Source: Ascochyta rabiei (Eukaryota > Ascomycota > Dothideomycetes > Pleosporales > Didymellaceae). From it: a stretch of 64,000 nucleotides of DNA. The notes below the pieces were generated by a model. That model saw only the letters and a list, made by a program, of their open reading frames with translations, was not told the DNA's origin and searched no databases. Of the stretch, positions 4,810-32,808 are shown piece after piece (position 1 is the stretch's first letter; every line of letters begins with the position of its first letter). The stretch covers positions 1,364,001 through 1,428,000 of the forward strand of contig NC_082417.1 of assembly GCF_004011695.2 (NCBI RefSeq). Direction: 5' to 3'. The position numbers were made by a program, and so were the translations under genes.

Positions 4810-5402
4810 GACGAGATTCTGGTTACAGCGACTGTACCGTTGCAGATGAGAAGCAGTACCGTGGTGGCGACGGACATTGCAACAGCTACCTGGGCATGCA
4901 GAAAAGGGTAGGAGGCCCTACTTCTGTCAGAACGAAGTATAATGTAGGTGAGAATGGGCGGTACGTGTTCCCGATCCGAAGTGGAGGGTCCGCCAAGGTT
5001 CGAGTGTCTTGGGTCGGCCGATCTCGTGCCATGTTCCCGAACCTTTCCTGTCTTGGCACCAAGACGCGCCTCATGTATTTACTACGGTTGAGACCCGTTA
5101 GATCATGTGGTGCAATTGTCCCTTATCTACCGTGTTGAGGCTGGATGCCTTGGATGTCTTGGCTCTCTATTCAGCATGCGAATCCGTCAATGATGCGCGT
5201 CGATTTGATTGCCATTTTGGAGTTTCGGCCTCACCGTGTCAGCCTTGCGTAATCACAGCCTGAATAGGAACAAGTGGTTATTTGATGGGTTAATACGAAT
5301 CTGCCACGCTACGTGTTTCTACATGTGTAGGTGGAGAACTGCAACGTGCGTCAAGAGGTACGGACCGAAGACACAAGAGTTCGCAACCGTTGTCTAAGCT
5401 TA
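4810..5402. promoter_or_regulatory. Upstream region of the serine hydrolase
   Basis: About 590 bp of ordinary base composition between the hydrolase start and the MITE. Short open frames on both strands lack good starts or recognisable motifs. I see no AAACTCCG motif. It presumably contains the hydrolase promoter. Confidence 0.4.
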
Positions 5403-13766: not shown

Positions 13767-15137
13767 TCAATATTCCTCCTGAATTGCATATGTGCACCGT
13801 GCCCAGTCAGGGTCCTCCATCAGACCTTGCAACTCCATGTCTGGTAAGCAAACAAGAATAAGATAGTCGCCCGACTTCTCCTGCGGATAGATGTAGAAAG
13901 TATTCACAGTGAGTCCCAGATGAGGACGGCGTCCAAAATCCGACTTGCCTAGGATACCGTAGTCAAATCCATTAACCTTGGCGTTCATCATCGACGAATG
14001 TCCCACATCAGTCTGTAAGTTCATACCTCCAGAGTACAGCAATTGCGTCTTGTCATCAACAGAGGCAACAAAAGTGGCATAAGAGCGAGCAGAAAACTCG
14101 TTATTCACATCGTCGAGATCCTTGCGCAGACGAGTTGTAACAGTGGAGAGTGGTGCATGAACGAGTTCCTGAAATGTCATGCGAGATGGTGATATATAAA
14201 CCATCTGGCCCAGATATCCTGGAGAGACCCCAAGGACTGGTCGAGTATCGATGGCGCGATTGAATTTGGATACTGTCGTGGGAGCCAGTCCAGTTTTGAT
14301 TCGTACGGATGCCAACGATTTCCAAAAAAGAGCACAGATGGCATCGTTGGGCGAAATGAAGGGAACCTCCTCGTCATATCCGATGGGGTCTTCAGCAGCT
14401 TTTTTGACATCGGCGACTGCTTCCTTGCGGAAGAGAAAGTTCTGCCATCTTCCACCAGGTCGGGCGGGAACGAATTCGGGCTCTGGATCTGGTTTTAGGA
14501 GCCAGCTATGGTCGAGTAAAGGTTCGAAAGGATCCATCAGACGAATGACACCAGCCGGATCTTGGTTCGCGGCTGCGATAATATCCTCTGGAAACGGTTC
14601 CCCTCGAAGCGCAAACGAGAGTAGTGTGATGATGGTGAAGAGACCGGTTCCGTCGACAACATTGTGTTGATTTGTGTAAGTCAAAAGAAAGCCGCCCTTC
14701 ACGAATGTGACTTGGATCATCGCTGGTGGCGCAGGTCCAATGACATCAGTGTCGTATCTTTCAGGAAAACCAGGGTATGGACAGAGAACCTTCCCGTCTA
14801 GCATGTAAAAAGGTGCGTTTGCGGCGCACATATCAGCGTATGGTGGCAATAGATCGGTGGCATCTTTGATCTTGAGAAGGCCATGAGGAGGGACCCCGGG
14901 AGGCCATGGTTCAACACGTATTGTTCCTGAGGTTCCATTTGCTCCGACTGTATGGACAACTTGTCCGGTGAGCCACGGAATCGCGTTAAGGATCTTGCCG
15001 GTCGCGTCGCGGAGGGCAGAGATGACTATCTCTTGGGTGAGATCATCTCTCCAGGGAAAAAGAGCAACGCCATGGTTGTACGTTTTTAATTGAGGAAATT
15101 GTCCAAGAACATCGACGCCGCGAGGCAGACCTGACAT
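13767..15137 (-). CDS. BAHD-like O-acyltransferase (trichothecene 3-O-acetyltransferase-type)
   Basis: An intron-free frame of 456 residues starting at an ATG (MSGLPRGVDV). The catalytic HxxxD of the CoA-dependent acyltransferase superfamily is present as HNVVDGTG (His158, Asp162). A C-terminal structural motif appears as KSDFGRRP in place of the usual DFGWG, a variation seen in the fungal branch. Residues such as FPWRDDL and NAIPWLTGQ near the N-terminus are typical of fungal members. The enzyme would transfer an acyl group from CoA (or from a carrier protein) to a hydroxyl of the polyketide. Azaphilone clusters contain acyltransferases of this class that esterify the bicyclic core. It is divergent from the monooxygenase gene and shares a 483-bp promoter with one AAACTCCG motif. 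The exact acyl donor cannot be read from sequence. Confidence 0.88.
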   Translation of the reverse strand: MSGLPRGVDVLGQFPQLKTYNHGVALFPWRDDLTQEIVISALRDATGKILNAIPWLTGQVVHTVGANGTSGTIRVEPWPPGVPPHGLLKIKDATDLLPPYADMCAANAPFYMLDGKVLCPYPGFPERYDTDVIGPAPPAMIQVTFVKGGFLLTYTNQHNVVDGTGLFTIITLLSFALRGEPFPEDIIAAANQDPAGVIRLMDPFEPLLDHSWLLKPDPEPEFVPARPGGRWQNFLFRKEAVADVKKAAEDPIGYDEEVPFISPNDAICALFWKSLASVRIKTGLAPTTVSKFNRAIDTRPVLGVSPGYLGQMVYISPSRMTFQELVHAPLSTVTTRLRKDLDDVNNEFSARSYATFVASVDDKTQLLYSGGMNLQTDVGHSSMMNAKVNGFDYGILGKSDFGRRPHLGLTVNTFYIYPQEKSGDYLILVCLPDMELQGLMEDPDWARCTYAIQEEY

Positions 15138-15620
15138 GCTGAGTTGCGATGCTAAATGGTTGGGCTCAGCAAAATCAAGAAATCAAACTGTTTTGTGTTC
15201 CGTATTCCAGAGGAAATTGCAACTTTTATCGGTATCCAATAAGATCTGTCTTTGTCGGTCTCGGGGGTGTTTACAAACCCGCCGTAGAGAGAGTGTTTCG
15301 CTTTTGTTTTTGTGGTCATCTGTGGCTTCGAAGAAACTCCGAGCCCCGGACCTCATGCGGACTTACCCAAATAGCCACTGACACTTTTGTTGACTAGGTT
15401 CCACAAACTGGGCCTGAACAGATCGGCTAGTCTTTGACCGGACGTCTTTATATTGCCGAGGTCGGCTCACGCTTCGAATCCGGAGTATTTGATTCATTTG
15501 TCGCACGGGGCAACAAGCTCTTATGCACGAACGTAAGGAAAGGCAACTTCCTATGCTCTCATCACCACACGCTCATATCGAAGGTTTGATCACTACCAAA
15601 TCAGTATTCACAAACACAGA
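15138..15620. promoter_or_regulatory. Shared divergent promoter, acyltransferase / FAD monooxygenase
   Basis: A 483-bp head-to-head spacer with one exact AAACTCCG (15334-15341), followed closely by a CCCCGGA. Short frames inside it lack support. Confidence 0.6.
15334..15341 (+). promoter_or_regulatory. AAACTCCG motif copy 3
   Basis: Exact 8-mer in the acyltransferase/monooxygenase spacer, about 285 bp upstream of the monooxygenase ATG. Confidence 0.5.
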
Positions 15621-17089
15621 ATGGCACAGCCCGCAGCCGATACCGACATGCTCGAGAAATCCAATGATGGCCGTCTGCAGGTCGCCATCATTGGCGGGGG
15701 GATCATTGGACTGGCCCTTGCTACTGGCCTTCTCCAACGCAACATCGATTTCACGATCTACGAGAGAGCCAGTGCCTTTCGCGAGATCGGGGCTGGCATC
15801 GGATTCACCCCAAACGCTGAAAGAGCTATGAGATTGCTCAATCCCGCCATCCATGCCGCTTACCGAAAGGTTGCCGTGCAGAATGACGAAGATTACTTTT
15901 ACTACATGGACGGATACAACTACAGCAGCGAGAGATCAGAACATGAAGAAACCATGCTCAAGCTGTACTTGGGTGAACGAGGGTTCGAAGGGTGTCGAAG
16001 GTCTGATTTCATGAACGAAATGGTGAAATTAATTCCAGAGCGTGATGTGCAGCTCAACAAAGAGCTGATTTTTGCAACTGAGAGAGAAGATAGTGGACTC
16101 ATTCATCTGATGTTCAAGGACGGCTCAACTGCAACGGCTGACGTTGGTAAATGCTGCCAACTCTTTTGCGAGCCTAGTGCTGACAGCCGACAGTGATTGG
16201 TTGCGACGGTATTCATTCAAAGATGAGGGAACTGTTGCTTGGCCAAGACCATCCGTCCTGCACACCTTCCTATAGTCATAAATACGCCATCCGAAGTCTC
16301 GTTCCGATGGAAAAAGCCCGGGCCACCCTTGGAATATTCAAGACGTCGAATCGTGTCATGCATTGTGGTCCAAATGCTCACGTCCTGACATTCCCTGTAG
16401 CAAACAACACGCTACTGAATGTGGTTGCTTTCGTCACCGACCCACAAGACTGGACGGTACCAGATGGGAAATTTGTGGTTCCCGCTGCCAAATCAGAGGC
16501 TATAAAGGCATTCTCAGGATTCAGCCCAGTTGTCCAGGGCCTGATGAATCTACTGCCCGAGGACCTTGACAGATGGGGAGTTTTTGACACATATGAACGT
16601 CCTGTACCTTCCTATGCAAATGGTCGCCTTTGCCTTGCCGGAGACGCGGCCCATGCTTCGTCTCCTCACCACGGTGCCGGTGCGGGAAGTGGTATCGAAG
16701 ACTGTCTTACATTAACTACACTTCTGCAAACCGTGTCTGAGCGAAGCAAGCTTCGTAGACCTAATGCCCTTCGTGTCGCACTCCAAGTGTACAACGATGT
16801 GCGTTACGATCGCTCTCAGTGGATCATGGACACGAGCAGAGCTGTCGGCGAGATCTACGAATTTCAAGGCTCGAGTTGTGGCTCGGATCACGCTAAGATC
16901 GCTCGCGAGATTCATGATCGTTCGCACCAAATTTGGGATTATGACATCGATGCTATGGTCAATGATACAAAGAGGCGTTTCGAAAAAGCGATGAAGGAGA
17001 TCCCTCCTTCAGTGGTAATCGAATTAGGCTCTGAGCCTGACGACCAACCTGCTACTCCACATCCGTGGCTGGACGGAATACGTTTGTAA
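15621..17089 (+). CDS. FAD-dependent monooxygenase, salicylate-hydroxylase-like
   Basis: Exons 15621-16146 and 16194-17089, intron of 47 bp, phase consistent (ADV|VIGCDG). The product is about 472 residues if translation stops at the TAA at 17087-17089. The N-terminal FAD-binding Rossmann motif is VAIIGGGIIGLALATGL (about residues 22-38). Next come IGAGIGF, the second FAD motif VIGCDGIHS (DG motif), and GDAAHASSPHHGAGAGSGIED (about 325), which binds the flavin ribityl and pyrophosphate. This is group A flavoprotein monooxygenase architecture. Relatives (AzaH, AfoD, TropB, SorC) hydroxylate and dearomatise the NR-PKS aldehyde, starting pyran-ring closure in azaphilones. The C-terminus is odd. 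The last codons overlap a GTAAGT splice donor at 17086, and splicing it fuses this frame to the downstream MFS transporter. The divergent neighbour is the acyltransferase. Confidence 0.9.
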
Positions 17090-17191
17090 GTACAACGGAA
17101 ACATTTAGGATTGTAGTAAAAGAGCCGTTGAATGCTGTATCGTTTTCAAATTTCGCTTTTGTCTACGCTGACACTTTGTTCTAAACTGCAG
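17086..17191 (+). other. Intron joining the monooxygenase and MFS frames; contains the monooxygenase stop
   Basis: GTAAGT at 17086 and a CAG acceptor ending at 17191 give a 106-bp intron, about twice the local norm, with a CTGAC branch-like site near 17167. Spliced, the frame reads GIRL|WAFLISIT and runs on through the transporter. Unspliced, the TAA at 17087-17089 ends the monooxygenase. No ATG in the transporter frame follows the in-frame TGA at 17169-17171 before the transporter exon, so the transporter cannot start inside the intron. Confidence 0.65.
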
Positions 17192-18982
17192 GTGGGCCTT
17201 TCTCATATCAATAACGCTGGTATATTTCTTAATGATGTTGGATATGTCAATCCTATCCACAGTAGGTTTTGATTGTGCTGAATCGGAATCGATTTGTTCT
17301 AACTTCTTTACCAGGCTATTCCCTATATCACCGACGATTTCCAATCACTGCTCGATGTGGGCTGGTATGGATCTGCGTACCAGCTATGCGCGTGAGTTTC
17401 TCTCAAGTGAGAGTGGTAACCATCTAACACACAATCTAGTGCATCTTTCCAACCACTTACTGGAAAGATGTATGCTCGATTCAATTCAAAAGTGCTCTTT
17501 CTGGGTTTTTTCACGATCTTTAACATTGGTTCTGCGATCTGTGGCGCAGCACAGTCGTCAGCTATGCTGATTCTCGGACGATTTGTTGCGGGATTGGGTG
17601 GTGCCGGCCTCATGAATGGAGGTTTTACGATGATTCACGCGTCGATACCCCCGGCACGACGGCCTAGCATGCTTGGATACTTCATGGCATGTGAGTAACT
17701 AGTGCAAGGATTTTTTCGAAAGGACACTGACAGACCTAGTCGGCAATCTAGGCTCTGCTAGTGGACCTCTCATAGGAGGAGCCATCACAGACTTCGTATC
17801 CTGGCGTTGGTGTAAGTGTATACCATACCATCGTCCCTCAATCACTGACAGTCATCAGGCTTCTACATCAATCTTCCCGCCGGTGCTCTCGTTTTCGTTG
17901 CTCTTTTGTTTCTGGATATCCCTGAGCCACTTGTCAAACCTCACTGGAAGGAAGTTCTGAAACACCCCATGCAAGAATTTGACCTGATTGGGTTCGGATT
18001 ATTCGGCCCTGCTGCGATCATGCTTTTCCTTGTCCTAGACTTTGGCGGCAATCGCTTCCCTTGGGACAGTCCAGAAGTCATTGGCCTGTTCTGCGGAGCT
18101 GGCGCTATGTTTGCGATATTCTGCCTGTGGAACTACCGGAAGGGCGTCTCTGCTCTCATACCGGTCTCAATGCTGGGTAGGCGAGTTGTCTGGTCAAGCT
18201 GCGCGACAATTTTCATTATCTCTGGTACGGTGTTTGTCACCGCATATTACCTACCGCTATACTTTCAAGGTGTCAAGGCCGACACCCCATTTGAAAGCGG
18301 CTACAATTTCCTACCGACAATTCTGACGCAAGTCGTCTTTACTCTTCTCAGCGGAAGACTGGGTGCGCCTCTTCCCCATTCACAGAATGCATGTGACTGA
18401 CAACAGTATAGTTCAGAGATTTGGTTACTACCTACCTTTCATACTGCTCGGTGGAGCATTGAACTCCGTTGGCTCGGGTATGTTTACAACTCTGTCGACC
18501 TCAACTAGTACGGCAAAACTTGTGGGCTATCAATTGATCTCCGGAACTGGTAGAGGTCTTGCACTTCCAATGGTATGCAACATCTTTATTGTGTTGTCAG
18601 TTCTGACACTGATACATTTTAGCCAATGATTGCTTTGCAAAGCAACCTCCAGCCAACCGAGGTACCAATAGCACTAGCAACCTTCGTCTTCTCTCAACAG
18701 ATTGGTGGTGCCCTGATGACAGTTATTGCCCAAACTATATTTACGAATGAGCTTAGGAATAATCTGGAGAGTCTCATACCCACAGTCGAGTCGGCTCGGA
18801 TCATTGAAGCAGGGGTAACGCGCATGAGATCTCTTGTGAATTCAGGCGAGTTACCACTGCTTCTGAAATCCTACAGTAACAGCATAGCGACGACATTCTA
18901 TTTTGGTACTGGTATGTCGATCTTGGGTGTGTTCGCAAGTTGTTGGATGGGATGGAAGGATGTCAGACCAAAGACCTCTTAA
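17192..18982 (+). CDS. MFS efflux transporter (DHA14-like), in frame with the upstream monooxygenase
   Basis: Exons by eye: 17192-17261, 17315-17391, 17440-17690, 17740-17811, 17859-18362, 18412-18572, 18623-18982, all GT-AG with phases that join. The first membrane helix reads WAFLISITLVYFLMMLDMSIL and continues STAIPYITDDF. Then come DVGWYGSAYQLCA, LTGKMYARF, the motif-C-like run GNLGSASGPLIGGAITD, and SWRWCFYINLPAGAL, all typical of drug:H+ antiporters of the 14-helix family. The transporter portion is about 498 residues, so near full length. It likely exports the cluster product across the plasma membrane. The segment before helix 1 (PHPWLDGIRL), which in MFS relatives reads like YxxGxxLW, is encoded by the last monooxygenase exon. 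Either the two are one 970-residue fusion, or a separate transporter message starts at the in-frame ATG at 16991 inside that exon. Confidence 0.85.
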
Positions 18983-19374
18983 GCTCTTAATCTTGTACTA
19001 TACAAGGGAAGAATGCCAATAGCTCCAGAAAATGAAATCAGTGATATGTTCGGTCGAACGTCTTGATGGCAATGCTAGTATATTCAATTAGAAGAAAATA
19101 GAGACCGAAGTCTTAACTCTTATGTCTGATAGCCATTGGTTTAACTTTGCTTGGATTTCGTCCGGTCCCTTGCATCCAGATCAAGAGAGGAGAAAACCGT
19201 TGGTGTCATCGTTGTTGGAGTCTCCAAAGCATCTTACTAACCTTATCTTCGAAATCAAGTCACTGATTAGAACAGGTCCTTTGTGAGCGAGCAAGAACAG
19301 ACAACAGCATTTATTTCATGTCAAAACGCACAAGTGGTTATTACGGACCCTGCAATAGATTACATGTCCTTCTT
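18983..19374. other. Convergent intergenic spacer
   Basis: About 390 bp between the 3' ends of the transporter and the 2-oxoglutarate oxygenase. A short plus-strand frame from 19283 runs into the antisense of the oxygenase and is not supported as a gene. Confidence 0.4.
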
Positions 19375-20501
19375 CTATGCCGGTATCTCAATCTTCGTCA
19401 CATTCGTCGCTGTTGAACCCTTTTCGAGGAACTTGCTCCTCTCTTCACCTAGTGACCTTCTAAGCCTCATCATGAAATGTTCTCTAACGCCGAAGTGGTG
19501 ACCAGATCCATCGAGTGACTGTGTTTCCAGCTTCATGTTTCCATTTAAGAAAAACGGGGCGGAATAGCGGTGCTGCTCGCCGAAGTTGATGACACGATGC
19601 AAAGAACTACGATAATAACCAGCCGTCCACTTCTCAATCAGATCGCCGATATTCACAACGTAAGAGTCTGGTGTTACAGGAACGGGTACCCAGCTCTCAG
19701 TAGGCGGGTACCAGACCTCAAGGCCCTTTGTTCCCGGTTGCTGCAGAAGAAAGGTTATCCCACCAAAGTCTGTGTGCGCGCCAGCTGGTCTGCAGTTAGC
19801 CCAGATCAGCACCCAGGAGCAGCATGATGGTATTACCTCCGAGTTGCCGAGGGTCAGTGGATAGCTGAGGGGGGTAGTGTAGCAATCGCAAGTTGCCTGA
19901 TGGATTGATGAGAAACTCGTCAAAAACGTTTGGCTCACAGCCCCACTCTTGAGGAAGTCCTGAGGCCAAGATCCCCAAAACCTTTTCGGCGAGCTTAACC
20001 ATAGTGTCTCGGTAGTGCATAACAGGTGTTTGAAACTCGCCTGTTGTCAGAGACTTTGGCCACTGATTAGGACCTGTCAAAAAAGTGCCCGCATCAGGGT
20101 GGTCTGGTGGAATTTCAGCACCAACAACGAAGCCCTGCTGAAGTTCAGAGATACATCGAAGTAATTTTCAAGCTAACACTTACCTCTTTCATGTCGGGTA
20201 GAGTGCCTGGCTCCGAGGTCTGGCCTCTGTAAACTTCATACCCACGATTCGACGCTCCTAAGGCGTTCTCAATGAAAACAGACATCTTCTCCTCCTCGGG
20301 AAGATCAAAGAAACGCTGGGCACATTCAAGCGCAGTCTCTTGATCCTTCAGAGGAATGCCGTGACCAACGATAGTGAAAAAACCATAGGTTCTAGCGGCA
20401 TTGCATATGGCTGCAATGACTGCTTGTTTGCCTTGAGGTGTGGCATCTGCGGCTAGGTATGGAGCGAGGTCAATCGTAGGGATCGAGGCTTTAGTGGCCA
20501 T
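19375..20501 (-). CDS. 2-oxoglutarate/Fe(II)-dependent oxygenase (isopenicillin N synthase-like)
   Basis: Exons on the minus strand: 20501-20184, 20134-19837, 19784-19375, giving 341 residues. The introns are 49 and 52 bp, and the second carries a CTAAC branch site. The N-terminal DIOX_N part includes IPTIDLAPYL and TYGFFTIVGHGIP. The catalytic domain has the iron ligands His209 and Asp211 in GAGAHTDFGG and His268 in SSLHRVINFG. The 2-oxoglutarate-binding RxS is at HRYSAPFF (Arg278, Ser280). The splice producing GAGAHTDFG matches the family's usual sequence, which supports the intron choice. It probably hydroxylates, desaturates or rearranges the polyketide. Related enzymes include TropC (ring expansion in tropolones) and CitB (citrinin). 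The upstream open frame to 20558 has no ATG. It shares a divergent promoter with the ketoreductase gene. Confidence 0.88.
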
Positions 20502-21144
20502 CTTTTGTGTTGGAGTGAGACGGACAACGAGGGCGCTTCGGTGTACTGCAGATAACAATTCTGTGCCTTCTGCTTATAGACATTAGAAGCATGGTTGTTA
20601 AACTAGTTTACCTTGCAACAATGCCTGTAGGAAGGAGTCGAAGTCCCGCATTCTATGCAAAACATTTGCCGAAAGAAACTCCGCTTACAACAACAATAAC
20701 ACATCAGTATCAAGAGGCCGTTCGTTCAAGCCCCTAGCAAAAGTGGTTCCAATCCCACGCCCAGTCTAACATGCAAGTCGAACGGCATCCGATTGGTAAA
20801 CGCAGAATACCTTCAGTCACCAGAGCTAATGAATTATCCAGTCTCCGGCACGGGCTTCATAAAGATCCGGAAAAACTGTCGTAGCGCTTCTTTGTACCAA
20901 TAAGTCTGAAACCGCATAGGTCTAATCCAGAAGCTACTTTACTCCATCGGAGTATCGATAATTTTTTAGAGTGCATTGAGTCGTGATCAACGGTTTTAAT
21001 AGCACCGGGCTTTAGTTTCTCAATCGAAGAAAGACAAGGCGCAAACATCAGGCTGAAAGATTTCGTTGCCAGTCGAACATAACGAACATCTTCTTCGATC
21101 TCAGGTATTGTTGTATAGTTTGGATAACAGCAGCTGCCATCTCG
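20502..21144. promoter_or_regulatory. Shared divergent promoter, 2OG oxygenase / ketoreductase
   Basis: A 643-bp head-to-head spacer with one exact AAACTCCG at 20676-20683. No gene is supported in it. Confidence 0.6.
20676..20683 (+). promoter_or_regulatory. AAACTCCG motif copy 4
   Basis: Exact 8-mer in the oxygenase/ketoreductase spacer, about 175 bp upstream of the oxygenase start. Confidence 0.5.
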
Positions 21145-22223
21145 ATGCATGTTCTGCTCACTGGGGGCAATGGCTTCCTGGCTGCTCATATACTTGAACA
21201 ACTTCTTGAACGCGGGTAGGGGTTTGTTTGATTCATGCCATGAACTCATGCTAACGATGATGGATCAGCCACACAGTAGTCACGACAGTCCGCAGCCACG
21301 AAAAAGCAAGTCGCATTAGGGCTCGTCATCCTACGCTCCCAAAGCGTAAGCTCGATTTTGCCATTGTATCAAACATTGCGCAGCACGATGCCTTCGACCA
21401 AGCAGTGCAAGGGGACCCTCCCTTCGACGCAGTTATCCACACGGCCAGCCCTAATGTTAGAAACTGTAACAACGTGCAGAAAGAACTATTAGATCCAGCC
21501 ATCATTGGAACGACAGGCATCTTGTCTTCAATTGCACGTTTCGCACCATCTGTGAAGCGTGTGGTCTGTGTTTCTTCTATCGCTGCTTTGATCGATGCGG
21601 CAAAGGGCAGTTGGCCGGAGCACACATATACAGCAACAGATTGGAACCCAATCACATTGGAAGAGGCGCTCGACAACTCTAGCTGGATCCCCGGATATCG
21701 TGGTAGCAAAACTTTTGCTGAGCGCGCCGCTTGGGCGTTCATGGATCAAGAGAAGCCTAGCTTCACGCTGACCACACTCGCGCCCCCTGGTATATTTGGG
21801 CCCATGGTCAAGTATCCAGGGTACCCAATGGAGGCGCCAAACGCTTCAAATGGGATTTTTGGCAGTCTCCTTCAGGGTAAGGTGCTTCCCACTGCCCTCT
21901 ATACCTGGATCGATGTGAAAGATGCTGCTCTTGCCCATGTCATGGCTATAGAAAACGACGCTTTTGGTGGTGAGCGCATCCTTCTCGCGTCTTCAGAGCA
22001 GCTGTGTAACAAGGATATACTGGAAATCATCTACGAAAATTATCCTGAGCTTCGCGAAAGACTTCCGGCAAGGCACACGTGGCAGATCGCGGGGTACCCA
22101 AAGGGTGGTGCGTACAAAGTCGATTCTGCGCGAGCGAGGGCTCTCATTGGGCGCGAATTTGTTCCGTTGAAGGACACCGTCAAGGAGACGGTCGATATGT
22201 TTAGGGAGTATTTTCAAATCTGA
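21145..22223 (+). CDS. NAD(P)-dependent extended short-chain reductase (ketoreductase, DFR-like)
   Basis: Exons 21145-21215 and 21269-22223 (341 residues). The small first exon begins MHVLLTGGNGFLAAHIL and supplies the TGxxGxxA nucleotide-binding motif. The 53-bp intron has a GCTAACG branch site and rejoins as LLERGHTVVTTVRS, where Arg after the second strand favours NADPH. The body shows DAVIHTASP, VVCVSSIAAL and the catalytic YxxxK as GYRGSKTFAE, then TLAPPGIFGP. This is the dihydroflavonol-reductase-like branch of extended SDRs. In azaphilone pathways a ketoreductase of this kind (AzaE, MrPigC) reduces the side-chain ketone of the released aldehyde, which is the likely role here. The region upstream of 21269 has no better start. 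The minus-strand frame overlapping exon 1 is a shadow. Confidence 0.88.
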
Positions 22224-22747
22224 TTGGATGTAATTTACTGAAATAAAGAACGCTAGCGTGCCAAAACTGTGTCGTTCGGTGCATATCGCAAAATGGTTGT
22301 GCGCTCACGCTGCGGATTCGGCGAATCTCAAAAGTCCGCAGCTTCTGACGAAACTCCGACAGTCCGACCCGAAGCCCATACAACCAAGATTTTGATATTG
22401 TGATCTGATCAGTTCCACTTTGTCCATAATTGTCAATCGATGATGTGGGGCTCGACAGTAGCATGCGTTCCTTACCAGTGTCTTCATTCATAATCATCTT
22501 CATTATAAAGACCTCATGAGTACTTCTCAATGGCTCTTTTTTTATCCACCAGGGGTCCCAGCTTCAATCCTCGAAGAGTGAATCGTTCTGCCAAATTGAG
22601 GACGATCCGGCTGCAACCACCATACAACTCACCGGCGAAGACTATTTAAAAACCTTGATTCGAGCTGACTCAGCTTCCTTGGATCTCAGACTTCTCCACA
22701 AGCCAACGCTCGCAATCTACTGTCTTCGCGATCCTGGATAATAAGAA
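22224..22747 (+). promoter_or_regulatory. Promoter region of the medium-chain reductase
   Basis: 524 bp between the ketoreductase stop and the next ATG. It contains AAACTCCG (22351-22358) followed by AGTCCG and preceded by AAAGTCCG, so several CCG half-sites cluster within 30 bp. No gene is supported. Confidence 0.55.
22351..22358 (+). promoter_or_regulatory. AAACTCCG motif copy 5
   Basis: Exact 8-mer about 390 bp upstream of the reductase ATG, with further TCCG sites beside it. Confidence 0.5.
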
Positions 22748-23860
22748 ATGACACCTACCAACAAAGCGGCTTGGCTGGTCGGCAAACAAGTTTTTCCCTT
22801 GTCCGTCCATGACGCACCCTACACACAGCCAGGAACGAATGAGATCGTTGTGAAAGCGGCAGCCGTCGCGATCAACCCTGTGGAAGCGATGAAACAAGCC
22901 ATGGGTGATAACATGATGCCCTGGATCAAATATCCCTTCGTTCTAGGTCACGATGTAGCAGGCGAGGTAGTCGAAGTTGGGCCCGGCGTCTCACGCTTCC
23001 GACCTGGCGACCGCGTGCTTGGTGACGCCGTCGGCCTCGACCAGCGGAGCAACCGCTCCTGCGAGGGTGCGTTCCAGGAATATGTCGTATTGCGCGAGAA
23101 CCTTGTTTCTCCTATACCGGACAGCCTAAGTTACGAATTCGCCTGTGTGCTTCCGCTCACGCTGTCTACGGCTGCATGTGCGTTGTACTCGAAGGACTAT
23201 CTGTCGCTGAACCTGCCCGGACTCAAATCTTCGGAAACTGGCGAGGTCGTACTGATATGGGGTGGATCAACGAGTGTCGGCTGCAACGCTATCCAACTTG
23301 CTGTTGCTTCTGGGTATGAAGTCATCACCACCGCATCCCCGAAGAATTTCAACATGGTGAAAGATTTGGGAGCTACTCATGTTTTCGACTATCATAATCT
23401 AGCAACGACTCAGAAGATTATTGGTCTGCTGGAGAGAAAAACGCTGGCTGGTGCTGTTGCCATTGGTGACGGATCAATGAAAGCATGTATTAAGATTGTA
23501 GCAGCCTCATCTGGAAAAAAGTTTATCGCCCAGGCTTCTCTTCCCATGCCTAATCAGATCCCACCAACAGGGCTCAACCTGGTATCTTTCATTTCTCGGT
23601 TTCTGTGGTTCAAGGTTTCGACTTTCATACATTGCAAAGTCAAGGGAGTCGACTACAAGTTTATATGGGGGGACGATGTAATGGAAAACGAGGTTGGTGG
23701 TGCAATCTACAGAGACTTCCTCCCAAGCGCGTTGGCAAAGGGAAGATACAAGTGCGCACCGGAACCGGTTGTAGTTGGAACTGGATTGGAGCACGTACAG
23801 GCAGCGTTAGACCGTATCAAGAAGGGTGTCTCCGCTCAGAAGTTAGTTGTGCTAATCTAG
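22748..23860 (+). CDS. Medium-chain dehydrogenase/reductase (CipB/ToxD-like, possible trans-acting enoyl reductase)
   Basis: A single-exon frame of 370 residues from a good ATG. The N-terminal GroES-like fold shows PGTNEIVVKAAAVAINPVE, then VLGHDVAGEVVEVGPG and RPGDRV. The Rossmann part carries WGGSTSVGCNAIQLA (about residues 172-186), the signature of the zinc-independent quinone-oxidoreductase branch. The cysteine cluster that holds a structural zinc in alcohol dehydrogenases is absent. This group includes the PKS partner enoyl reductases such as LovC and many CipB-type enzymes of unknown substrate. Monascus pigment clusters carry a comparable enoyl reductase. Here it could serve the HR-PKS, whose own ER domain has a changed nucleotide-binding loop, or act as a tailoring reductase. 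Its promoter carries the cluster motif. Confidence 0.85.
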   Translation: MTPTNKAAWLVGKQVFPLSVHDAPYTQPGTNEIVVKAAAVAINPVEAMKQAMGDNMMPWIKYPFVLGHDVAGEVVEVGPGVSRFRPGDRVLGDAVGLDQRSNRSCEGAFQEYVVLRENLVSPIPDSLSYEFACVLPLTLSTAACALYSKDYLSLNLPGLKSSETGEVVLIWGGSTSVGCNAIQLAVASGYEVITTASPKNFNMVKDLGATHVFDYHNLATTQKIIGLLERKTLAGAVAIGDGSMKACIKIVAASSGKKFIAQASLPMPNQIPPTGLNLVSFISRFLWFKVSTFIHCKVKGVDYKFIWGDDVMENEVGGAIYRDFLPSALAKGRYKCAPEPVVVGTGLEHVQAALDRIKKGVSAQKLVVLI

Positions 23861-24223: not shown

Positions 24224-27200
24224 CTACACTAAGAATTTACGTTTTCTCCAACTTTGAATGAATCGGCGCACTGTATCATCATCCACAGGCCCGATATTTC
24301 GCATACCCTCCGAGTCATTACGACTCCTTTCTGTTTCCAGCAACACACCCCCACAGCTCATTCGTAAAAAGTCAGTCTCGAGAAAATCCACAAGTCGGTT
24401 TGCCGGATTAAGGTCCACCTGGCCTGTGGTGCCCGATGAAGGAAATGATCTCACACGCCGAATCCACTCCCCAAAAGAAATAATTTCAGGAATCTCAAGC
24501 TCCTGAGCAAGCAAAGGCAGCAAGTCACTCCACGGCTGGCGAACAGGATTATCGATGTGATAAAACCCTCCCTGGGTCATCTCCCCCAGCGCAAGATCAG
24601 CACACACGCGTGCCACAGCATCGACAGGCGTCCAGCTCACGGGACCTTCGAACCGAGGCAGCGCCCCCAGTGTCTGTGAGCTCTTGAGCAGGAAAGGGAG
24701 GTGCTCGGTCTCGTTCCAGTATCCTGAAGTGGAGGATCCAGCGACTTGTCCAAGCCGCACGACCGTTACTTTGAAGCGAGAATGATGCTGATGCAGTGTG
24801 GCGTCAAGCATGCGTTCGCAGACGTATTTTGCGTCGCCGTAGCCATTGGGTAGCACATGCTCGATGGTCATACGCTGCTCAGGCACCGCAGATGATCCCT
24901 CGTGCAGGGGATAGTGGCCTACAGTCGCGATGGAAGATATGAACTGGAAGCCCACTTCAAAATTAGATGGGCGTTTTGAAGATATGAGTGCTGCAAAGTC
25001 GATGAGGTTACGAAGGACACGGAATTGTGGGGTGAAGGCTGAAAAGGGCTGTTTCGCGTTCATGGGCCACGCATTGTGAACGATGTGTGTTACAGTGTTG
25101 ACAAGCGAGTCGTATGTGTGAGGTGGAAGGCCAAAGTGTGGCTTCGTGATATCGACTTCGAATACGGAGACTTTGTTCGTTGCCTGTGGAGAGAGGATGA
25201 TGTCTCTTGATGTAAGGGCGATCAGCTGGCGCGCGAGAGGATCGAGGCCAGAGGATCTATTTCGTCGATTTAGACAGATGATTGACGATATCGCGGTAAG
25301 ATTGGCGTAATGAGCGACCATATGTGTTCCAAGGCTACCAGTGGCGCCGGTGATGAGAACGCATTGTCCTGATCGGCGAGCGTCGTGGGAGACCGAGTCC
25401 AATCTTGGAGGCAATGCGAAGTCAGCAGTATTTCCGCGGATGGCTCTCTCAGTCGAAGCCCTCCTTTCGACATGACGGAAGTCCTACTGGTTTGGTCAGT
25501 GAGTTGTAGATTGTGATGTCATTCATTGCTCACCTCGCTCTTTCCATGCTTTGAAGGAGGCAACAAACGCTCAGCTTGTGTGCCTCCTGCTGTGGCAATA
25601 ATTAGCCGTTCGCAGTTGATTTCTTCCGCACTTCCATCGCTCCAATCGACATGCCCATAACCAACACTGTGCAGGACTTTTTCCCATGCCTGGGGTGAGG
25701 TTACAGCATGCTGTCTGTCATCTTCGAACATCCACCAGCCTTCAAAAACACCAAAGATGATGTCGCACCAATACATGGGCTCTGTCATCTCGAGTAGAAG
25801 TAACAAGCCATCCGGTCGAAGCATCTTGCGAATATTCGTGGTCGATAGAGGCAGACTGCGCGTTGCGTGCACAGCATTGCTTGCGATGACGACATGTTGG
25901 CTGTGCAGCAAGTCCTTTGCGGGTTCCTTCTCAATATCGTGGACTCTAAACTTCATGAAAGGATACTGCTTGAACTTCTTCCTCGCTGCAGCGACGAAAC
26001 TGGATGCCAGGTCGGTGAAGGTGTACTCAACCATGATGCCCAGATTGGCCAACAGGGGAATCAGAGTCCTCGTCGTGGCACCAGTGCCGGCCCCCATTTC
26101 AAGAATCTTCAAAGGTCCCTGTTCCCGACTTTGCAGATGTGATGATGCAAGACGACGAAGGAAATCGCCCATTTGATCGTAGTACATCTTATTCATCGGG
26201 AAGTCAGCGTACACAGCGCCGACGAGCTCACGGCCTCGTTCGGTGCCGAAGATGAGTTTGATACCATCTTCCTGTCCTGTTATGATATCGGAGAGACGCG
26301 AGCCAGTATAGTACGCTAGCTCGTTGCAGCACGCGTGCTCTGGGAAATTGTCGAGTAGGCCGCGAAACAGGTCGCTACTCGTCTTTGATGGAACCGGGAC
26401 ATCAGTACGGGTGATTCCTCCATTATTGTGCTGCACGACCCTGGCTTTTTCGAGTACCGTATAAAGATATTGTGCAAACTTCTTTTGGTCGCCAGCATGC
26501 GTGATAAATGATAGCTCTTGACCTGGTTTTGCAGCACCAAGATCACATCCCAGGTTTCGAAACGCTTCAACAATGAGTGCTACGCACATTTCATCTTGAT
26601 GCGGCGCGACGGTTTGCAGATACCCGTGAATGCCATACTGTTCCATAAGCTTATCGGTCTGCAACTTTGACTCGCTGAAAGCTTTGACTACGGCGTCTTG
26701 AGACAAGACGAGGTCAAACGGGAAGGCCTCGGCTTCGTCTGGAACTGACATAGGCGTGATTGAATCGACAGTGTCCGTGTCATTGTCGTCCGAAGACGTT
26801 GGCGCAGATGAGATGTCTGGGCCGATGATTGTTGTCCCGAGCGCTCCCTGCACGCAGCGGAGCAGATCCGGTAGATCAGTGACGTGTGCGAGCTCGTCTT
26901 GAGGTAGTGTGCAACTGAACTCGTTCTCAATCTCTTTTGCCATCTCCATTCCCATGAGTGAGTCAACACCGATGTCGCCGAGCTCGACGTTGTCTTTGAT
27001 CTCGTCAACGTCGAGGCCAGATAATTCGGCCAAAATTGCTTTGAGTCTCTTGAAAACATCCTCTTGCGTGCTTTTGGGTGCTCGGATGGTCTCCGCAGCA
27101 TACACGGTCTTAGGAGGCGCCAAATCGGGGAGAGGGATGGATGCTGAGAGAACCGGAGGACCGCCCTTGACCACTGGCTGTACCGGTCCGTCTATGTCGC

Positions 27201-30200
27201 GAGATAGACGGGACAGCAATTTCCCCATCGACAATCTCGACACCTTTGCGTATTGAATACCCAAAATAGCCTCAACAAGCCTCCCAGTTCCAGCATCAAA
27301 GACGAATACATCTGACAACGTGGTTGTACCGTCTGCGGAGCGCGAGTGTTGCCCAAAGATATCCCATTTATCAATCGAACAAGTCTGTGGCTTTGTCATG
27401 GTGGGGGCACGTATCCACTGCTCGATACCATTGGCGATCCACATGTCTTTCTCGCTTTCCTCCGCCATGCAGTTTACCCAGATCCCGGCTACCTGACAGA
27501 ATGCGTCCGACAAAAAAGCATCGAGCCAAGTTTTGCCCGTGTGCTTCTTGATGACACGGCCAGCCGATTCTGATCCTCGGCCGACAAGCTTCTGCAAGCC
27601 AAAGTAAAGAGGAGAATACTGGACGATAGGCGAGAATACACGGTAGATACTCCTCTGGCCCTGGAGTACGTCGTCTGGGTTTTCCGATTGCAGAAGTTTT
27701 ATGCATCGGCGGTGGCTAACGAGTCGTTCGTAACGCGCAAACTCTGCCTGATAGTGGATATCGACTGATTTGCGGAAATGGATTTCACCAGATACATGAG
27801 TAGTGGGCACGGCACTTGTGGGGCTTGTGGATGTCCACTTCCAGCTCCAACTTGTGCGCTCAACATCTAGCGCTTCAGCCTCAAGCCATACAGAACGCGA
27901 AGCGTCAACACATATGGGGACAAGGTTCGTCATGCTGCGGATCTGCGGTTGGACTTCATCGCCCGCGAGATGTCCGAAGAGACTCCTCAGCGCTTCGATG
28001 GCAATATCGATCTGCACTGTTGCTGGGCAGATTGGTGCTACGCCGGCAATAACGTGACCAGCAACGATATCATGGTACTTCGGTAGCATGGTGTTGATTC
28101 GGAACCTGGCGGAGCGTTGCTGAGTATCTTGGTATCCAGTGAATGTGTAGAGCTCTAGCAGGATCTCCTCCATCTTCTCGTTCACGATGGTCGTAACCTT
28201 TGGAGGGGCCTTAAGCTCAAGCCAGTGTCTATTCCTCTCAAACTGGTATGGTGGCAGCAGTATGGAGTCGTAATCCTCTGTTTGAGCCCTTGAATGACCC
28301 CAGTACGTTACATTGACTCCAGCTTTCCAAAGAGCCATTGTGGAGTCAATGAGTCTCTGTAAGCCTTGAGAACCTGATAAATTTACGGCCTGCAAATGGT
28401 GATCCGATGGTTTTGCAAGAGACTTGGTTGCCATTGAAGTGATGGTCGCGTTGGAACCCGCTTCAAGCCAAACGGCGGAAGGATACCTCTTTGCAAGACG
28501 ACGAACAGCATGAGAGAAATACACAGGCTGTCTCAAATGATCGGCGACGACATCCGCGTCGAATGGCTTCATGTACATGGAGCTATTGGAAGACCTCTCG
28601 AAATGAAGTGTTGGCTGGTTGAAGGTAAGATCCTTGCCAATTTGCTGCAGTTTTGGTCGGAGTGAATCGACCAGACCAGAGTGAAAGGCGTTCGAGACGC
28701 TCAATCTTTTTACTCGCAGGTGAGGATACTTTTCCGAAACTGTTGCTTGAATAAGATCAACACTGTGTACAGATCCAGCTACGGTGTAGCATTGCGGAGT
28801 ATTGTAGCATGCGATGGACGCGTCGTGGACTTGATCGACATCGGCTAATACTTTCAAGACGTCGTCCTCATCTGCATCGATGACTAGCATGGAGCCTTTC
28901 TCGGGACCCCAACTTTCTCGGACAACGGTAGCACGACGGATGATCATTTTCATTGCGTCCTCGAGACCGATCACACCAGATAAGCACATGGCTGTTAGCT
29001 CACCAAAACTGTGACCGACTACGGCAACGGGCCTGACACCGCACTCGATCCAGCACTGAGCGGTACTGTACTGCAGCGCAAACAACGCAGCTTGGAGGAG
29101 AACAATATCGGAGATGGGTGTGTCTTGGAAGACCGCGGGGTAGATGCTTCCGGCACCAAGTGCGATGGCCAAGTCGTTGCAGCGATCCATGTGCTGGCGT
29201 AGAAGGGTGATCCTGTTGTATAAAACCCGATCAAGGTTGATAGTTGTCGACATTTGGCCGCCGAAGCATAGAATGACTGGCTTGGACGAGGACACGTCGG
29301 TGAAACTTGTGGCAACCTTGTCGAGTTCGGCGAGCTTTCCAAAAAGATCCGGGACCGACCGGGCACTTAACAGTAGAGCTCGGGGAAGTGAGCGGTTCGA
29401 TTGTCGTGAGATGTTGAATGCAAGATCTTGTATAGGCGCATTTGGTTTCCGGTTGAGTTGATCGCGGAGCTTGGTAGTGAAAGAACGTATGCTTCTGTCA
29501 TCGAGACCAGCAAACCAGAACGGATATCGGATATCTGAATCCTCTTTCCCACGCTTAACAGTTGCAGCGGCTTCAGGGCTAAGTTTGGGAGCCTGAGTAA
29601 CAACCATAGAGGCATTGCTCCCGCTCGCACCGTAGTTGTTGATCAGCGCGGCCTTGAACTCAGCATTCCATGGCTTCAGTTCAGTCGAGATCTTGATGCC
29701 ATCGTTTGCGTTCGCGCCTATTGCCGGGTTCAAAACGGAGTGACTTGCCTGGGGCGGTATGGCAGCCTCGTGCATCATACACAGCACTTTGATGAGACTG
29801 ACGGCACCAGAGCTGCCTTCTGTGTGCCCGACCAGGCCTTTCACCGAGCCCAACTCCAACGCAACCGGTCTTTCTATCCGGTTGCCTTTTTCTTGTCCGA
29901 AAATATGACGGATGGCGGCGTATTCTGCAGGATCGCCTACTGGTGTTCCTGTACCATGCGCTTCGACCACGGAAACATCCTGCGCATCCAGTTTGGCCGT
30001 CTGCAGTACTGATCTGAAGAGGGTTGACAGAGAGGGTGCGTTAGGGACTACGATGGGCGTGTCGTTGCTATTCTGAGCCACGGCGGTACCAGAGATGACA
30101 CCAAAGATGACATCCCCATCTTCTCTTGCTTTGGACAGCGACTTGAGGAAGACAGCCGTAACCGCTTCTCCGCGGCAGTAGCCGTCTGCATTCGCGTCGA

Positions 30201-32105
30201 ACGGCTTGCAAGCACCGGTCGGACTGAGGAACGATGCACCAGCAAGGTTCTGATAAACACCTGGCTCACTGATGGTGTTTGTGCCACCAGCGAGCGCGGC
30301 AACGACCTCCCCGGACAGGATAGCACGACATGCGGTGTGGATGGCGACTGCAGACGCAGAGCAGGCTGTGTCGAGCGTAAGCGAAGGGCCGAGCCATCCA
30401 AAGTAGTGTGAGAGCTTCCCAGCCACAAAGGATCGCAGGGTGCCCGTTGCAGTATATGCGGTTGGCGCGTGGTGCGAGCAGTTGGCTACGTAATCGTTGC
30501 CGCACATGCCGATGTAACAGCCAATGTTCTTCAGGTCGGCGGCCGAAGCTCCGCTACCGGCATCGGCCTTGTTGGTGTCGTTAAAGTAGCCCGACATCTC
30601 GACAGCCTGGTAAGCACACTGAAGCAGGAGTCGTTGCTGAGGGTCCATGCTGGAGCTCTCCCTGGGTGTCTTCTTGAAGAATTTGTGGTCAAAGTCCTCT
30701 ACGCCATCGATGAAGTTTCCGTACCAGTTCTTGGCGGCATCGTTTTCCCGGAAAACGGTGTCGAAGGAAAACTTATCTTCGGACACACGCCTGTGCTGCG
30801 ACCTTCCTGCCGCAAGGAGGTTCCAGAATTCAGGAAGAGAGGATGCTCCGGCGACGTTTATCGACATACCGACGACAGCAACATCGTCCGTGTTCACTCG
30901 TCGCGACAGTGCAGTCGCATTGTCAAAGTATGTAGTTCGTCCAGCAAAACTGCTTGATACACTTGATGGAATGCAACGTTCGCCAAAGGAGACAAAGCAT
31001 GCACTCTTCGGCGGATACGACGCTTTGAGGTCCGAAATAATGTTATACCACTCACACTTGTGCAACAGGATAGCCTGGAGTGCAAGCTTGTGATGACTCT
31101 CTTGGCTGTTGAGCAGAGCTTCACCAGCTTTGGCTCTGGTCGGGATCTTTGGCGTGGACGAAGAGAACGCGAATGCGGGATGTTTGTCGCAGAAGTCCAT
31201 GATCGAGTCAAACGATCCACGGTGGTCGTATTCACTGTGGAAACGTCCTGAGAGCCCCAATTCGGTGGTAGAAAAACCCGCATCCCTCAGGGCCTTTTGA
31301 AGCGGCTCGAGGGTCGAGACGGTCGTCGTGACAGACATGCGCGTTATGTCGTATGCTACTGAGATGTAGGCCTAAATCCAGCATACGGTTAGATTGTTCG
31401 TAATCCTGGCGCATAAGAGACCGAGAGTGACAGGTCTCATCATGGTCCTTTTGGGGGGAAGAGAAGACTCGCCTCTGGGAAATCTGCTAGGGTATCGTCT
31501 AAGCTGTTGCTCGCGATAGTGGCACCGGCGCGCTTCCAAGCGACAGATAGCGTCTTCGACGGACCTCTCGTGTCATGAAGATGTTGTTTATCGACTACAG
31601 CACCAACAAGCATTGCTAATCGTACTGCTACTCCAGCATTTTGATCGAAATCTGTAGCCGTTGACTGGTACGTACGGGCGACGGCGAAGGCACTGAGCAA
31701 TCCAATACAGAACCCGGCCGTCTCCTTGACCACTGGCTTTTGATGTTCGGCTTGCTGGCCGTCAAGAAACGCGCTGTATTGCACAAGTTGCTCTATTACG
31801 ACTAGTGGTGCGAGAAGCGAGTTCGATAGCTGCTTAGTGTCCAGAGAGAGGTCAGCAGTGTTCAGCCATTTCGCTATGTTATCGATCTGGGTCTTGCTGG
31901 CTACATCATGTAGATCGGGAATTTCGGCAGTCAAGGTCTTATAGTGCGCAGGTAGCGAGCTAATAACGTCTTTAACCCAGGCATGTTGTGGCGAAGAGAG
32001 GATAGTGGTTCGCAGTGCACTGAGATTCGACTGTGAAAAAGACCGTGTGAGAGAGCCAAATATGAGGACTGCCGGTTCATGGTTGCGGGATATAGAGGAT
32101 GACAT
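24224..32105 (-). CDS. Non-reducing polyketide synthase SAT-KS-AT-PT-ACP-CMeT-R
   Basis: Exons on the minus strand: 32105-31473, 31371-25534, 25483-24224, about 2576 residues. Domains in order follow. SAT has GFCIGLLSA (Cys133). KS has DTACSASA (active Cys about 548), EAHGTGTP and GLVGHTEGSS. The malonyl-CoA:ACP transacylase has VVGHSFGE (about 1002). PT has AGHVIAGVAPICPA (His about 1316) and a later WLDAFLSDAF Asp. ACP has GDIGVDSLMG (Ser about 1676). CMeT has LEMGAGTGATT (about 1969). The C-terminal thioester reductase has VLITGATGSLG (about 2206) and YGDAKYVCE (Tyr/Lys). This order defines NR-PKSs that release an aldehyde, as in AzaA, AfoE, SorB and TropA. SAT would accept the chain made by the divergent HR-PKS. 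The first intron (31472-31372) begins with GC rather than GT. The second (25533-25484) is GT-AG. All catalytic residues I checked are present. Confidence 0.95.
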
Positions 32106-32808
32106 GGCTGGTAATTGAGTGATCTTTGTCAAGACAAAGCGAGGAATAGTATCAGAAAATTGACGAAGAATCGATGCAGGTATTGCACAAAAGTATAAAA
32201 AAGCGCAATGATCTTCAAGGCGGAAAGGTATGCCTTGCGCCTAAATGCTATATACACTGCAAGATCGTAGTATTAGCTTCGGCTGAGCAACGCGCCATCT
32301 CAATTATCTATGGTTGGACTTTGTTTACGTGGGTGAAGGCCAAGGCCGTGGCCAATGTCTTCGGCCCCAGCGATCCGGACTATCTTGGCCTTACAAATTC
32401 TCGGAGTAACTTTTCGGACTCACAAACGCACCACGAAACCCCGTACAAGCCTGAAATCGTGAACCTCAACCCTCGGCACTTTTTCCATGGCAGCGGTGCT
32501 ACCGTTACGGAGCCATGCAAGTCCGGCAAAACGATGCGAATTGGTACAGACTACGTTTCGAGCCATCGCTTTATCCTTAAGAGTTCATAAACATGGTCTT
32601 AAATATTGCTATTTCTGTAGTCAACACAGTCTTTTTCCAAGGGGACAATCATTCTTTCAGTTACACTTGATCTGCTTTAATTGAACAGCTCCGTTCCTGA
32701 ACTCAACGTTACAGTGGGCACATTCAATTCTTTGCTCACTCACGCATCAACACATCCAAAGCTCTTTACATCGACAACAAGTCATTCTACCAAGTGAACC
32801 CAATCAAG
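32106..32808. promoter_or_regulatory. Shared divergent promoter of the two PKS genes
   Basis: A 703-bp spacer between the PKS start codons. It contains a one-mismatch version of the cluster motif, CGGAGTAA (32402-32409), followed eight bases later by TTCGG. Several other CGG/CCG triplets occur (near 32375, 32505, 32522). A small plus-strand frame (32174-32590) has no ATG-supported domain and is not called. Confidence 0.6.
32402..32409 (-). promoter_or_regulatory. Near-match of the cluster motif (TTACTCCG)
   Basis: Seven of eight bases match AAACTCCG, roughly midway between the PKS genes. Weaker evidence than the exact copies. Confidence 0.35.

What the first reader, a model, noticed from the sequence alone, without database searches (positions are those of the whole stretch)
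15621..18982. FAD monooxygenase and MFS exporter share one reading frame; the stop codon sits inside the splice donor
Seen: the monooxygenase ends CGT TTG TAA GT, and the TAA lies within a GTAAGT donor at 17086. Removing 17086-17191 joins GIRL to WAFLISITLV in frame and continues through seven transporter exons with no stop. There is no ATG for the transporter inside the intron after the in-frame TGA at 17169. Known: MFS relatives have a GxxLW-like motif just before helix 1, and here that motif straddles the intron. Inference: either a ~970-residue oxygenase-exporter fusion, or alternative splicing that gives free enzyme (intron retained) and fusion or exporter (spliced), or an in-frame transporter start at the ATG at 16991. 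A fusion would place the dearomatising enzyme at the membrane and couple synthesis to export.
Basis: partly seen in the sequence, partly recalled or inferred. Interest (0 to 1): 0.85.

Follow-up and report, generated by a model that had tools for sequence, protein, structure and literature searches.

The report
Dearomatising enzyme fused to its exporter
A fungal pigment-type gene cluster carries one gene that appears to make a single protein in which an oxidising enzyme is joined to a membrane exporter, and the same joined gene is found in related fungi.

Summary
Exons 15621-18982 (+) splice into one 970-codon frame without a stop: a complete TropB/AfoD/SorC-type flavin monooxygenase (FMO), a loose linker, and an MFS transporter of DHA2 type. 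The "stop inside the donor" is ordinary: a phase-2 intron starting GTAA or GTGA always makes one, and intron 4 of this gene does too. The fusion looks real. Proteins crossing the same junction come from ten named species. Nine environmental ORFs end exactly at the same donor. P0160 seems to run from enzyme into TM1 without introns 1 and 2. The end of the "enzyme" exon codes the transporter's own pre-TM1 motif: 63 of 71 standalone transporters have it, 0 of 79 standalone FMOs. The fusions form one branch in the transporter tree; in the FMO tree one FMO-only Diplodia protein falls among them. A separate transporter start is poorly supported. Likely role, inferred: the enzyme dearomatises an azaphilone-type polyketide at the membrane and the attached exporter removes it, as separate SorC and SorT are reported to do (PMC11934079). 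I had no transcript or protein evidence.

The parts
15621..16146 (+). Exon 1 of the fusion gene (FMO, Rossmann part)
   Evidence: Splice model; Pfam FAD_binding_3 at residues 19-356
16194..17085 (+). Exon 2: rest of the FMO, linker, and the transporter's pre-TM1 motif PWLDGIRL at its 3' end
   Evidence: alignment to SorC, AfoD and TropB
17086..17191 (+). Intron 2, 106 bp, phase 2, GTAAGT...CTGCAG; holds the in-frame TAA (17087-17089) and TGA (17169)
   Evidence: nine environmental ORFs end at the same donor position
16991..16993 (+). In-frame ATG, Met442: the candidate internal start, judged unlikely
   Evidence: Kept in 15 of 23 junction-bearing sequences
17192..17261 (+). Exon 3: TM1 of the transporter
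17315..17391 (+). Exon 4 of the transporter part; its donor also makes an in-frame stop (GCG TGA)
17440..17690 (+). Exon 5
17740..17811 (+). Exon 6
17859..18362 (+). Exon 7
18412..18572 (+). Exon 8
18623..18982 (+). Exon 9 with the stop codon 18980-18982
   Evidence: Pfam MFS_1 at residues 481-882
13770..15182 (-). Neighbour: acyltransferase ORF (TRI-like_N, Transferase)
19378..20573 (-). Neighbour: 2OG-Fe(II) oxygenase, two open stretches (DIOX_N and 2OG-FeII_Oxy)
21261..22220 (+). Neighbour: Epimerase / 3Beta_HSD-like reductase ORF
22745..23857 (+). Neighbour: zinc alcohol dehydrogenase ORF
24227..32240 (-). Neighbour: non-reducing PKS in three open stretches (SAT; KS-AT-ACP-methyltransferase; NAD_binding_4 reductive release)
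   Evidence: the stretches were not joined
32701..40477 (+). Neighbour: highly reducing PKS in three open stretches (KS; AT-DH-methyltransferase-ER-KR-ACP)
   Evidence: the stretches were not joined

Best explanation
One gene makes one protein of 970 residues. Residues ~18-443 are a group A flavin monooxygenase of the dearomatising TropB/AfoD/SorC type. Residues ~444-465 are a poorly conserved, flexible linker. Residues ~466-970 are a DHA2-type MFS exporter whose usual N-terminal tail has been replaced by the enzyme. The gene probably arose once, by joining two neighbouring genes of an azaphilone-type cluster, and was kept in relatives. The enzyme is expected on the cytosolic face of the membrane, where it dearomatises the aromatic compound made by the two PKSs; the attached transporter then carries the reactive product, or something made from it, out of the cytosol. 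Shown by sequence: the joined frame, its recurrence, two intact domains, one fusion branch. Inferred: that the single protein is made, its orientation, its substrate, and the hand-off. The confidence given is for the fusion protein; for functional coupling of the two steps I would say about 0.5.
For: 970 codons without a stop over nine GT-AG exons. Both domains complete: the FMO aligns to SorC (residues 14-434), AfoD (18-443) and TropB (18-438) nearly end to end, MFS_1 at 481-882; model of the homologue P0001 has mean pLDDT 84.7 with residues 447-464 under 50, and Foldseek finds TropB, AfoD, SorC and also EfpA, EmrB, QacA. Junction-crossing proteins in ten named species. Nine environmental ORFs end at the same donor. 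P0160 crosses the junction and then reads into what looks like the intron 3 donor. The pre-TM1 motif, coded in the FMO exon, is in 63 of 71 standalone MFS and 0 of 79 standalone FMOs. One fusion branch in each tree. Sequence kept at 59-76% in the FMO and 62-90% in motif plus MFS but only 9-36% in the linker, over five relatives. SorC and SorT are reported to act in succession (PMC11934079, passages).
Against: No transcript or protein was seen. The relatives are mostly predicted gene models, and predictors do merge neighbours: one search also lists one-off FMO models joined to a hydrolase, an acyltransferase or a P450, and MFS-FMO models in reverse order (P0026, P0032). Several junction models are truncated (P0004, P0008, P0009, P0158, P0160, P0163) and P0007 and P0079 lack TM1 or part of it. 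The FMO-only Diplodia seriata protein P0159 falls inside the fusion branch. Met442 is kept in 15 of 23 sequences and would give a 32-residue tail up to the motif end, within the range of standalone transporters (27-189). pTM 0.56 says nothing firm about how the domains pack.
Confidence: 0.84

Rival explanations
1. Regulated intron retention: the retained transcript gives a free 473-residue enzyme and the spliced one gives the fusion, so splicing sets soluble against membrane-bound enzyme.
For: The stop follows the donor at once, and the retained product has all FMO residues. Intron 2 is twice as long as the others. The ten unspliced frames known (window plus nine environmental ORFs) all end at the donor.
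Against: A phase-2 GTAA/GTGA/GTAG donor always gives a stop; intron 4 does the same. P0160 seems to lack intron 2. A retained transcript would have a stop upstream of six further introns and would probably be degraded (nonsense-mediated decay, recalled). The retained product would carry the transporter's tail and motif.
Confidence: 0.09
2. The transporter is made separately, from ATG 16991 (Met442) or from its own 5' exon and promoter; enzyme and transporter genes overlap.
For: Met442 is in frame, kept in 15 of 23 sequences, and would leave a tail of ordinary length for this family.
Against: Met442 sits in the FMO's last helix in the homologue's model. 8 of 23 sequences lack it; P0158 and P0200 have no Met between the FMO's D-x-M and the junction. 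The intron has no in-frame ATG after TGA 17169. The transporter's motif is in the FMO exon, so a separate 5' exon would have to replace a conserved motif.
Confidence: 0.04
3. Two ordinary neighbouring genes that only look joinable; the fused models in other species are prediction artefacts.
For: Gene predictors merge neighbours; one search lists several one-off FMO-plus-neighbour models. Diplodia P0159 is FMO only.
Against: The transporter has no start of its own and its conserved motif is coded in the FMO exon. The join recurs at one position across a branch of proteins 57-95% identical to this one, and in unspliced environmental ORFs.
Confidence: 0.03

Closest known systems
SorC (FMO) and SorT (MFS) of the sorbicillinoid cluster
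   Same: An FMO of the same kind dearomatises a polyketide and an MFS protein exports the product (PMC11934079, passages). SorC is the best solved relative of the FMO half.
   Different: SorC and SorT are separate proteins. SorT itself was not compared by sequence here.
TropB and AfoD, free dearomatising FMOs
   Same: Aligned over nearly the whole FMO half and first in the fold search; Arg at TropB 206 is kept (R209).
   Different: They are free proteins of 440-447 residues. Position TropB 239 is Phe here (F242).
Hfaza1C of Hypoxylon fragiforme and other standalone DHA2-type MFS
   Same: Hfaza1C is 46% identical over 97% of the transporter query; the name comes from the source label.
   Different: Standalone, with its own N-terminal tail.
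MamZ of magnetotactic bacteria
   Same: A redox-enzyme domain fused to an MFS transporter (PMC3971196, passages).
   Different: Ferric reductase domain, iron, bacterial magnetosome; not compared by sequence here.

Membership tests
TropB/AfoD/SorC-type dearomatising FMO | Alignment over nearly the whole length of solved members | tested here: met
   SorC 4-430 of 445, AfoD 10-438 of 440, TropB 12-441 of 447
TropB/AfoD/SorC-type dearomatising FMO | Arg and Trp reported conserved (SorC Arg201 and Trp300) | tested here: met
   R209 and W303 in the alignment; residue roles from PMC11934079 passages
TropB/AfoD/SorC-type dearomatising FMO | Oxidative dearomatisation activity | not testable with these tools
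   Needs an enzyme assay
DHA2-type MFS exporter | MFS_1 match above the curated cut-off | tested here: met
   161.7 bits against a cut-off of 33.4
DHA2-type MFS exporter | NCBIfam TIGR00711 (DHA2 efflux) at or above its curated cut-off | tested here: not met
   Tested on the homologues P0001, P0005, P0006: 167.6-171.2 bits over almost the whole model, but the cut-off is 230.2; it is a model for bacterial and archaeal annotation. So it resembles this family; membership by that model is not claimed.
DHA2-type MFS exporter | Export activity | not testable with these tools
   Needs a transport assay
Azaphilone-type cluster | NR-PKS with reductive release, HR-PKS and a dearomatising FMO together | tested here: met
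   the definition is recalled and in line with PMC6763771 and PMC8403587 passages
Azaphilone-type cluster | Azaphilone product identified | not testable with these tools
   No chemistry available
Ascochitine cluster | Gene content of Table 1 in PMC6763771 | tested here: not met
   The rows seen (orf1-orf9) include a separate 517-residue transporter and no FMO; compared by annotation only, not by sequence

The most novel reading that the evidence does not exclude
The fusion is an enzyme-exporter machine: the FMO is held at the cytosolic mouth of the exporter so that a reactive dearomatised intermediate is passed directly into the transport path and does not spread in the cell. Loss of the tether alone, with both activities intact, would then cause self-damage or shunt products.
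Probability: 0.35. Interest if true: 0.8.

Novelty: new variant of a known kind. Interest (0 to 1): 0.62.

Why it matters
Fungal clusters usually code synthesis and export in separate genes, and physical coupling of the two is mostly argued from co-localisation (general knowledge). A natural, recurrent, covalent enzyme-exporter pair would make that question directly testable by comparing joined and split forms, and would offer a ready tether for pathway engineering. My searches found no description of such a protein (listings only, and for only 15 of 151 papers were listed). The library lacks most subscription journals.

Tried and rejected
Considered and rejected: that the TAA in the donor is itself a signal (it follows from phase and donor). 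That this is the ascochitine cluster. That a second fusion exists in this genome: one search shows separate FMO and MFS matches elsewhere and no other place with both, but only 47 of 116 candidates were scored. That the product is lunatoic acid: one search listed four papers, of which I saw the listing only; left open.

Led nowhere: Rfam and tRNA scans of the window (no hit). Literature searches for an FMO-MFS or enzyme-transporter fusion in fungi (no paper; 15 of 151 listed; five papers, one of use, MamZ; two papers; 8 of 223 listed). PMC4124159 passages named no fusion. PMC4921024 treats prokaryotes (passages); its abstract says that fused genes most often code transporters, regulators and enzymes and that avoiding toxicity is one rationale. 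NCBIfam: TIGR00711 and TIGR03219 matched below their cut-offs.

Limits and dropped rows: the DNA of other species could not be read, so their introns are inferred from where unspliced-looking ORFs end; that P0160 and the nine ORFs are unspliced is my inference. The protein searches scored only the 7997 candidates sharing most words, and one search listed 120 of 180 hits. Trees: 13 fusion rows plus 34 standalone FMOs picked by me; 8 fusion rows plus 31 of the 78 standalone MFS (five junction proteins left out as truncated); both quick trees, midpoint root; of 78 MFS rows, 5 had no TM1 match and 2 a cut tail; of 115 FMO rows, 12 junction-bearing and 24 without the anchor (P0159 among them) were left out. 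The second notebook entry's label for P0212 (AzaH) is recalled; its source label reads FAD-dependent monooxygenase orf3 and is cut off. The first notebook entry calls the linker Met 449; it is Met442.
Full report
WHAT WAS CLAIMED AND WHAT IS THERE. The finding says that a flavin monooxygenase (FMO) and an MFS transporter share one reading frame, with the enzyme's stop codon inside a splice donor. I read 14500-20500, translated it in three frames and built a splice model: exons 15621-16146, 16194-17085, 17192-17261, 17315-17391, 17440-17690, 17740-17811, 17859-18362, 18412-18572, 18623-18982. It has 970 codons and no internal stop. The eight introns are GT-AG and each carries a CTRAC-like site starting 13-24 nt from its 3' end. 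With intron 2 kept, the enzyme would end after 473 residues. Pfam places FAD_binding_3 at residues 19-356 and MFS_1 at 481-882 of the one chain.

THE STOP IN THE DONOR IS ORDINARY. Intron 2 has phase 2. A phase-2 intron that begins GTAA, GTGA or GTAG must create NNG followed by a stop. Six of this gene's eight donors would do so in phase 2, and both of its real phase-2 introns do: intron 2 (TAA) and intron 4 (GCG TGA). Intron 2 is odd only in length (106 bp; the other seven are 47-53 bp).

THE JOIN RECURS. A search with the whole protein admits only proteins of at least 0.55 times its length, which keeps out most free FMOs. It returned the same architecture in Curvularia kusanoi (81% identity), Bipolaris zeicola (79%, 31 member sequences), Ascochyta lentis (79%), A. 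clinopodiicola (95% over 78% of the query), Polyplosphaeria fusca (61%), Pyrenophora teres (59%) and P. tritici-repentis (57%, named 'MFS-1 multi-domain protein', TM1 missing from its model). Shorter models that still cross the junction come from Pleomassaria siparia and Neofusicoccum parvum, Macrophomina phaseolina, a second N. parvum entry and one unnamed source, P0160. A second P. tritici-repentis entry, P0079, is a partial protein that starts in the FMO tail and runs into the transporter. The ten named species belong to Pleosporales and Botryosphaeriales (order names recalled).

UNSPLICED-LOOKING SEQUENCES AGREE. Nine environmental proteins (P0180, P0181, P0200, P0214, P0216, P0218, P0238, P0249, P0252) lie within exon 2 (P0200 begins slightly upstream of it) and end exactly at the G-x-[LV] before the donor, so the intron position seems shared. 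P0160 (511 aa) instead runs from the FMO through the linker and TM1 to STVS..., which looks like an unspliced intron 3. Introns 1 and 2 then seem absent in that organism and the enzyme-to-transporter frame unbroken. I could not read its DNA.

WHOSE ARE THE LAST RESIDUES OF THE ENZYME EXON? In standalone relatives of the transporter, the stretch before TM1 mostly reads [YW]-[VIL]-x-G-x-[KR]-L. At the matching offset, 68 of 71 have G, 66 of 71 have L, and 63 of 71 have G together with L, I, V or M. Here that stretch is PWLDGIRL and it is coded by the FMO's exon. None of 79 standalone FMOs has such a motif; their tails after the I-W-D-Y-D anchor have a median length of 25 residues (range 19-93), against 52 here up to the junction. 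Three MFS relatives fetched from the same genome read through this position into TM1 in one frame; one of them lacks the G. The transporter therefore appears to need the FMO exon, and without the splice the FMO would carry a piece of transporter.

A SEPARATE START IS POORLY SUPPORTED. The intron has no ATG in the transporter's frame after TGA 17169. The in-frame ATG 16991 is Met442. It lies in the last helix of the FMO in the homologue's model (residues 427-448). In its favour, it is kept in 15 of 23 junction-bearing sequences and would leave 32 residues up to the motif end, within the 27-189 seen in standalone transporters. Against it, 8 of 23 lack it, and P0158 and P0200 have no Met between the FMO's conserved D-x-M and the junction.

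ONE ORIGIN IS LIKELY. In a tree of 47 FMOs, the 13 fusion rows and one other, the FMO-only Diplodia seriata P0159, form a branch with SH-aLRT 99; counted strictly, the label needs two changes. In a tree of 39 transporters, the 8 fusion rows form a branch with 100. P0159 may be a loss or a cut model. FMO and MFS hits share a longest-contig length in five cases (51285 Pleopsidium, 767613 Pleurostoma, 1941687 Xanthoria, 5118729 Cryphonectria, 38906 Viridothelium). This suggests, without proving it, that unfused genes on one contig are the older state.

TWO COMPLETE DOMAINS AND A LOOSE LINKER. The FMO aligns almost end to end with solved SorC, AfoD and TropB. R209 and W303 sit at SorC Arg201 and Trp300, reported among the substrate-binding residues and as conserved (PMC11934079, passages). 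F242 sits at TropB position 239, tied to stereochemistry; AzaH has Phe there but gives R products (PMC10789314, passages), so I make no call. AlphaFold2 on the Curvularia homologue P0001, with 33 sequences in the alignment, gave mean pLDDT 84.7 and pTM 0.56; residues 1-15, 327-339, 447-464 and 970-972 are under 50, and 447-464 is the linker. Foldseek ranks TropB, AfoD and SorC first and the MFS pumps EfpA, EmrB and QacA from rank 22 on. Over five relatives, identity is 59-76% in the FMO, 9-36% in the linker and 62-90% in motif plus transporter.

SURROUNDINGS. The gene sits among ORFs for an acyltransferase, a 2OG-Fe(II) oxygenase, a reductase, a zinc alcohol dehydrogenase, an NR-PKS with SAT, methyltransferase and reductive release, an HR-PKS, a transcription-factor domain and an FSH1 hydrolase (19 of the 46 stop-to-stop stretches scanned). 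None of these 19 matched another transporter family. This looks like an azaphilone-type cluster. A named relative of the transporter is Hfaza1C of Hypoxylon fragiforme (46%), and hfaza1 is tied to azaphilones there (PMC8403587, passages). The product here is unknown. The fungus is probably an Ascochyta: 95% identity to A. clinopodiicola, and genome and contig sizes (40,901,820; C1 3,374,210) close to A. rabiei ArME14 (40,927,385 and largest contig 3,373,759; PMC7341154, passages). This is not proved.

HOW IT PROBABLY WORKS. In the sorbicillinoid pathway, SorC dearomatises sorbicillin inside the cell and the MFS protein SorT carries sorbicillinol out; the authors suggest that export of so reactive a compound may be favourable (PMC11934079, passages). 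The fusion puts two such steps in one chain. The FMO should face the cytosol, where NAD(P)H and the PKS product are, and the N-terminus of this transporter type is cytosolic (recalled). This is inference; I put direct hand-off at about one in three. Plainer reasons, fixed 1:1 expression or membrane anchoring, fit as well.

VERDICT. A separate start is weak; intron retention is possible but unsupported. The architecture was not found in my paper searches, but both halves are known kinds, so I rate it a new variant of a known kind.

Noticed in passing
P0015, P0018, P0035; P0012, P0016, P0017, P0022; P0023: Other FMO models carry a second domain typical of such clusters: PF02458 acyltransferase, PF03959 hydrolase, or PF00067 P450. 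They may be merged gene models or further real fusions of this FMO type.
   Followed up: no
P0026, P0032: MFS-FMO models in the reverse order, from a Chaetothyriales isolate and Halenospora varia; probably merged neighbours, and a warning about trusting models alone.
   Followed up: partly
P0159, Diplodia seriata, 438 aa: An FMO-only protein inside the fusion branch, next to Macrophomina: a loss of the transporter half or a cut gene model.
   Followed up: partly
window 40481-64000: No stop-to-stop stretch of 120 aa or more lies after 40480, and G+C falls to 32-42% from 42 kb on: an AT-rich, apparently gene-poor flank of the cluster.
   Followed up: no
window 3946-4917 (-): An FSH1 serine hydrolase ORF stands as a G+C-richer island between AT-rich stretches, some 4 kb from the next ORF of 120 aa or more.
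   Followed up: no
window 12182-12730 (+): A DUF2306 predicted membrane protein ORF lies between the transcription-factor and acyltransferase ORFs; its role here is unknown.
   Followed up: no
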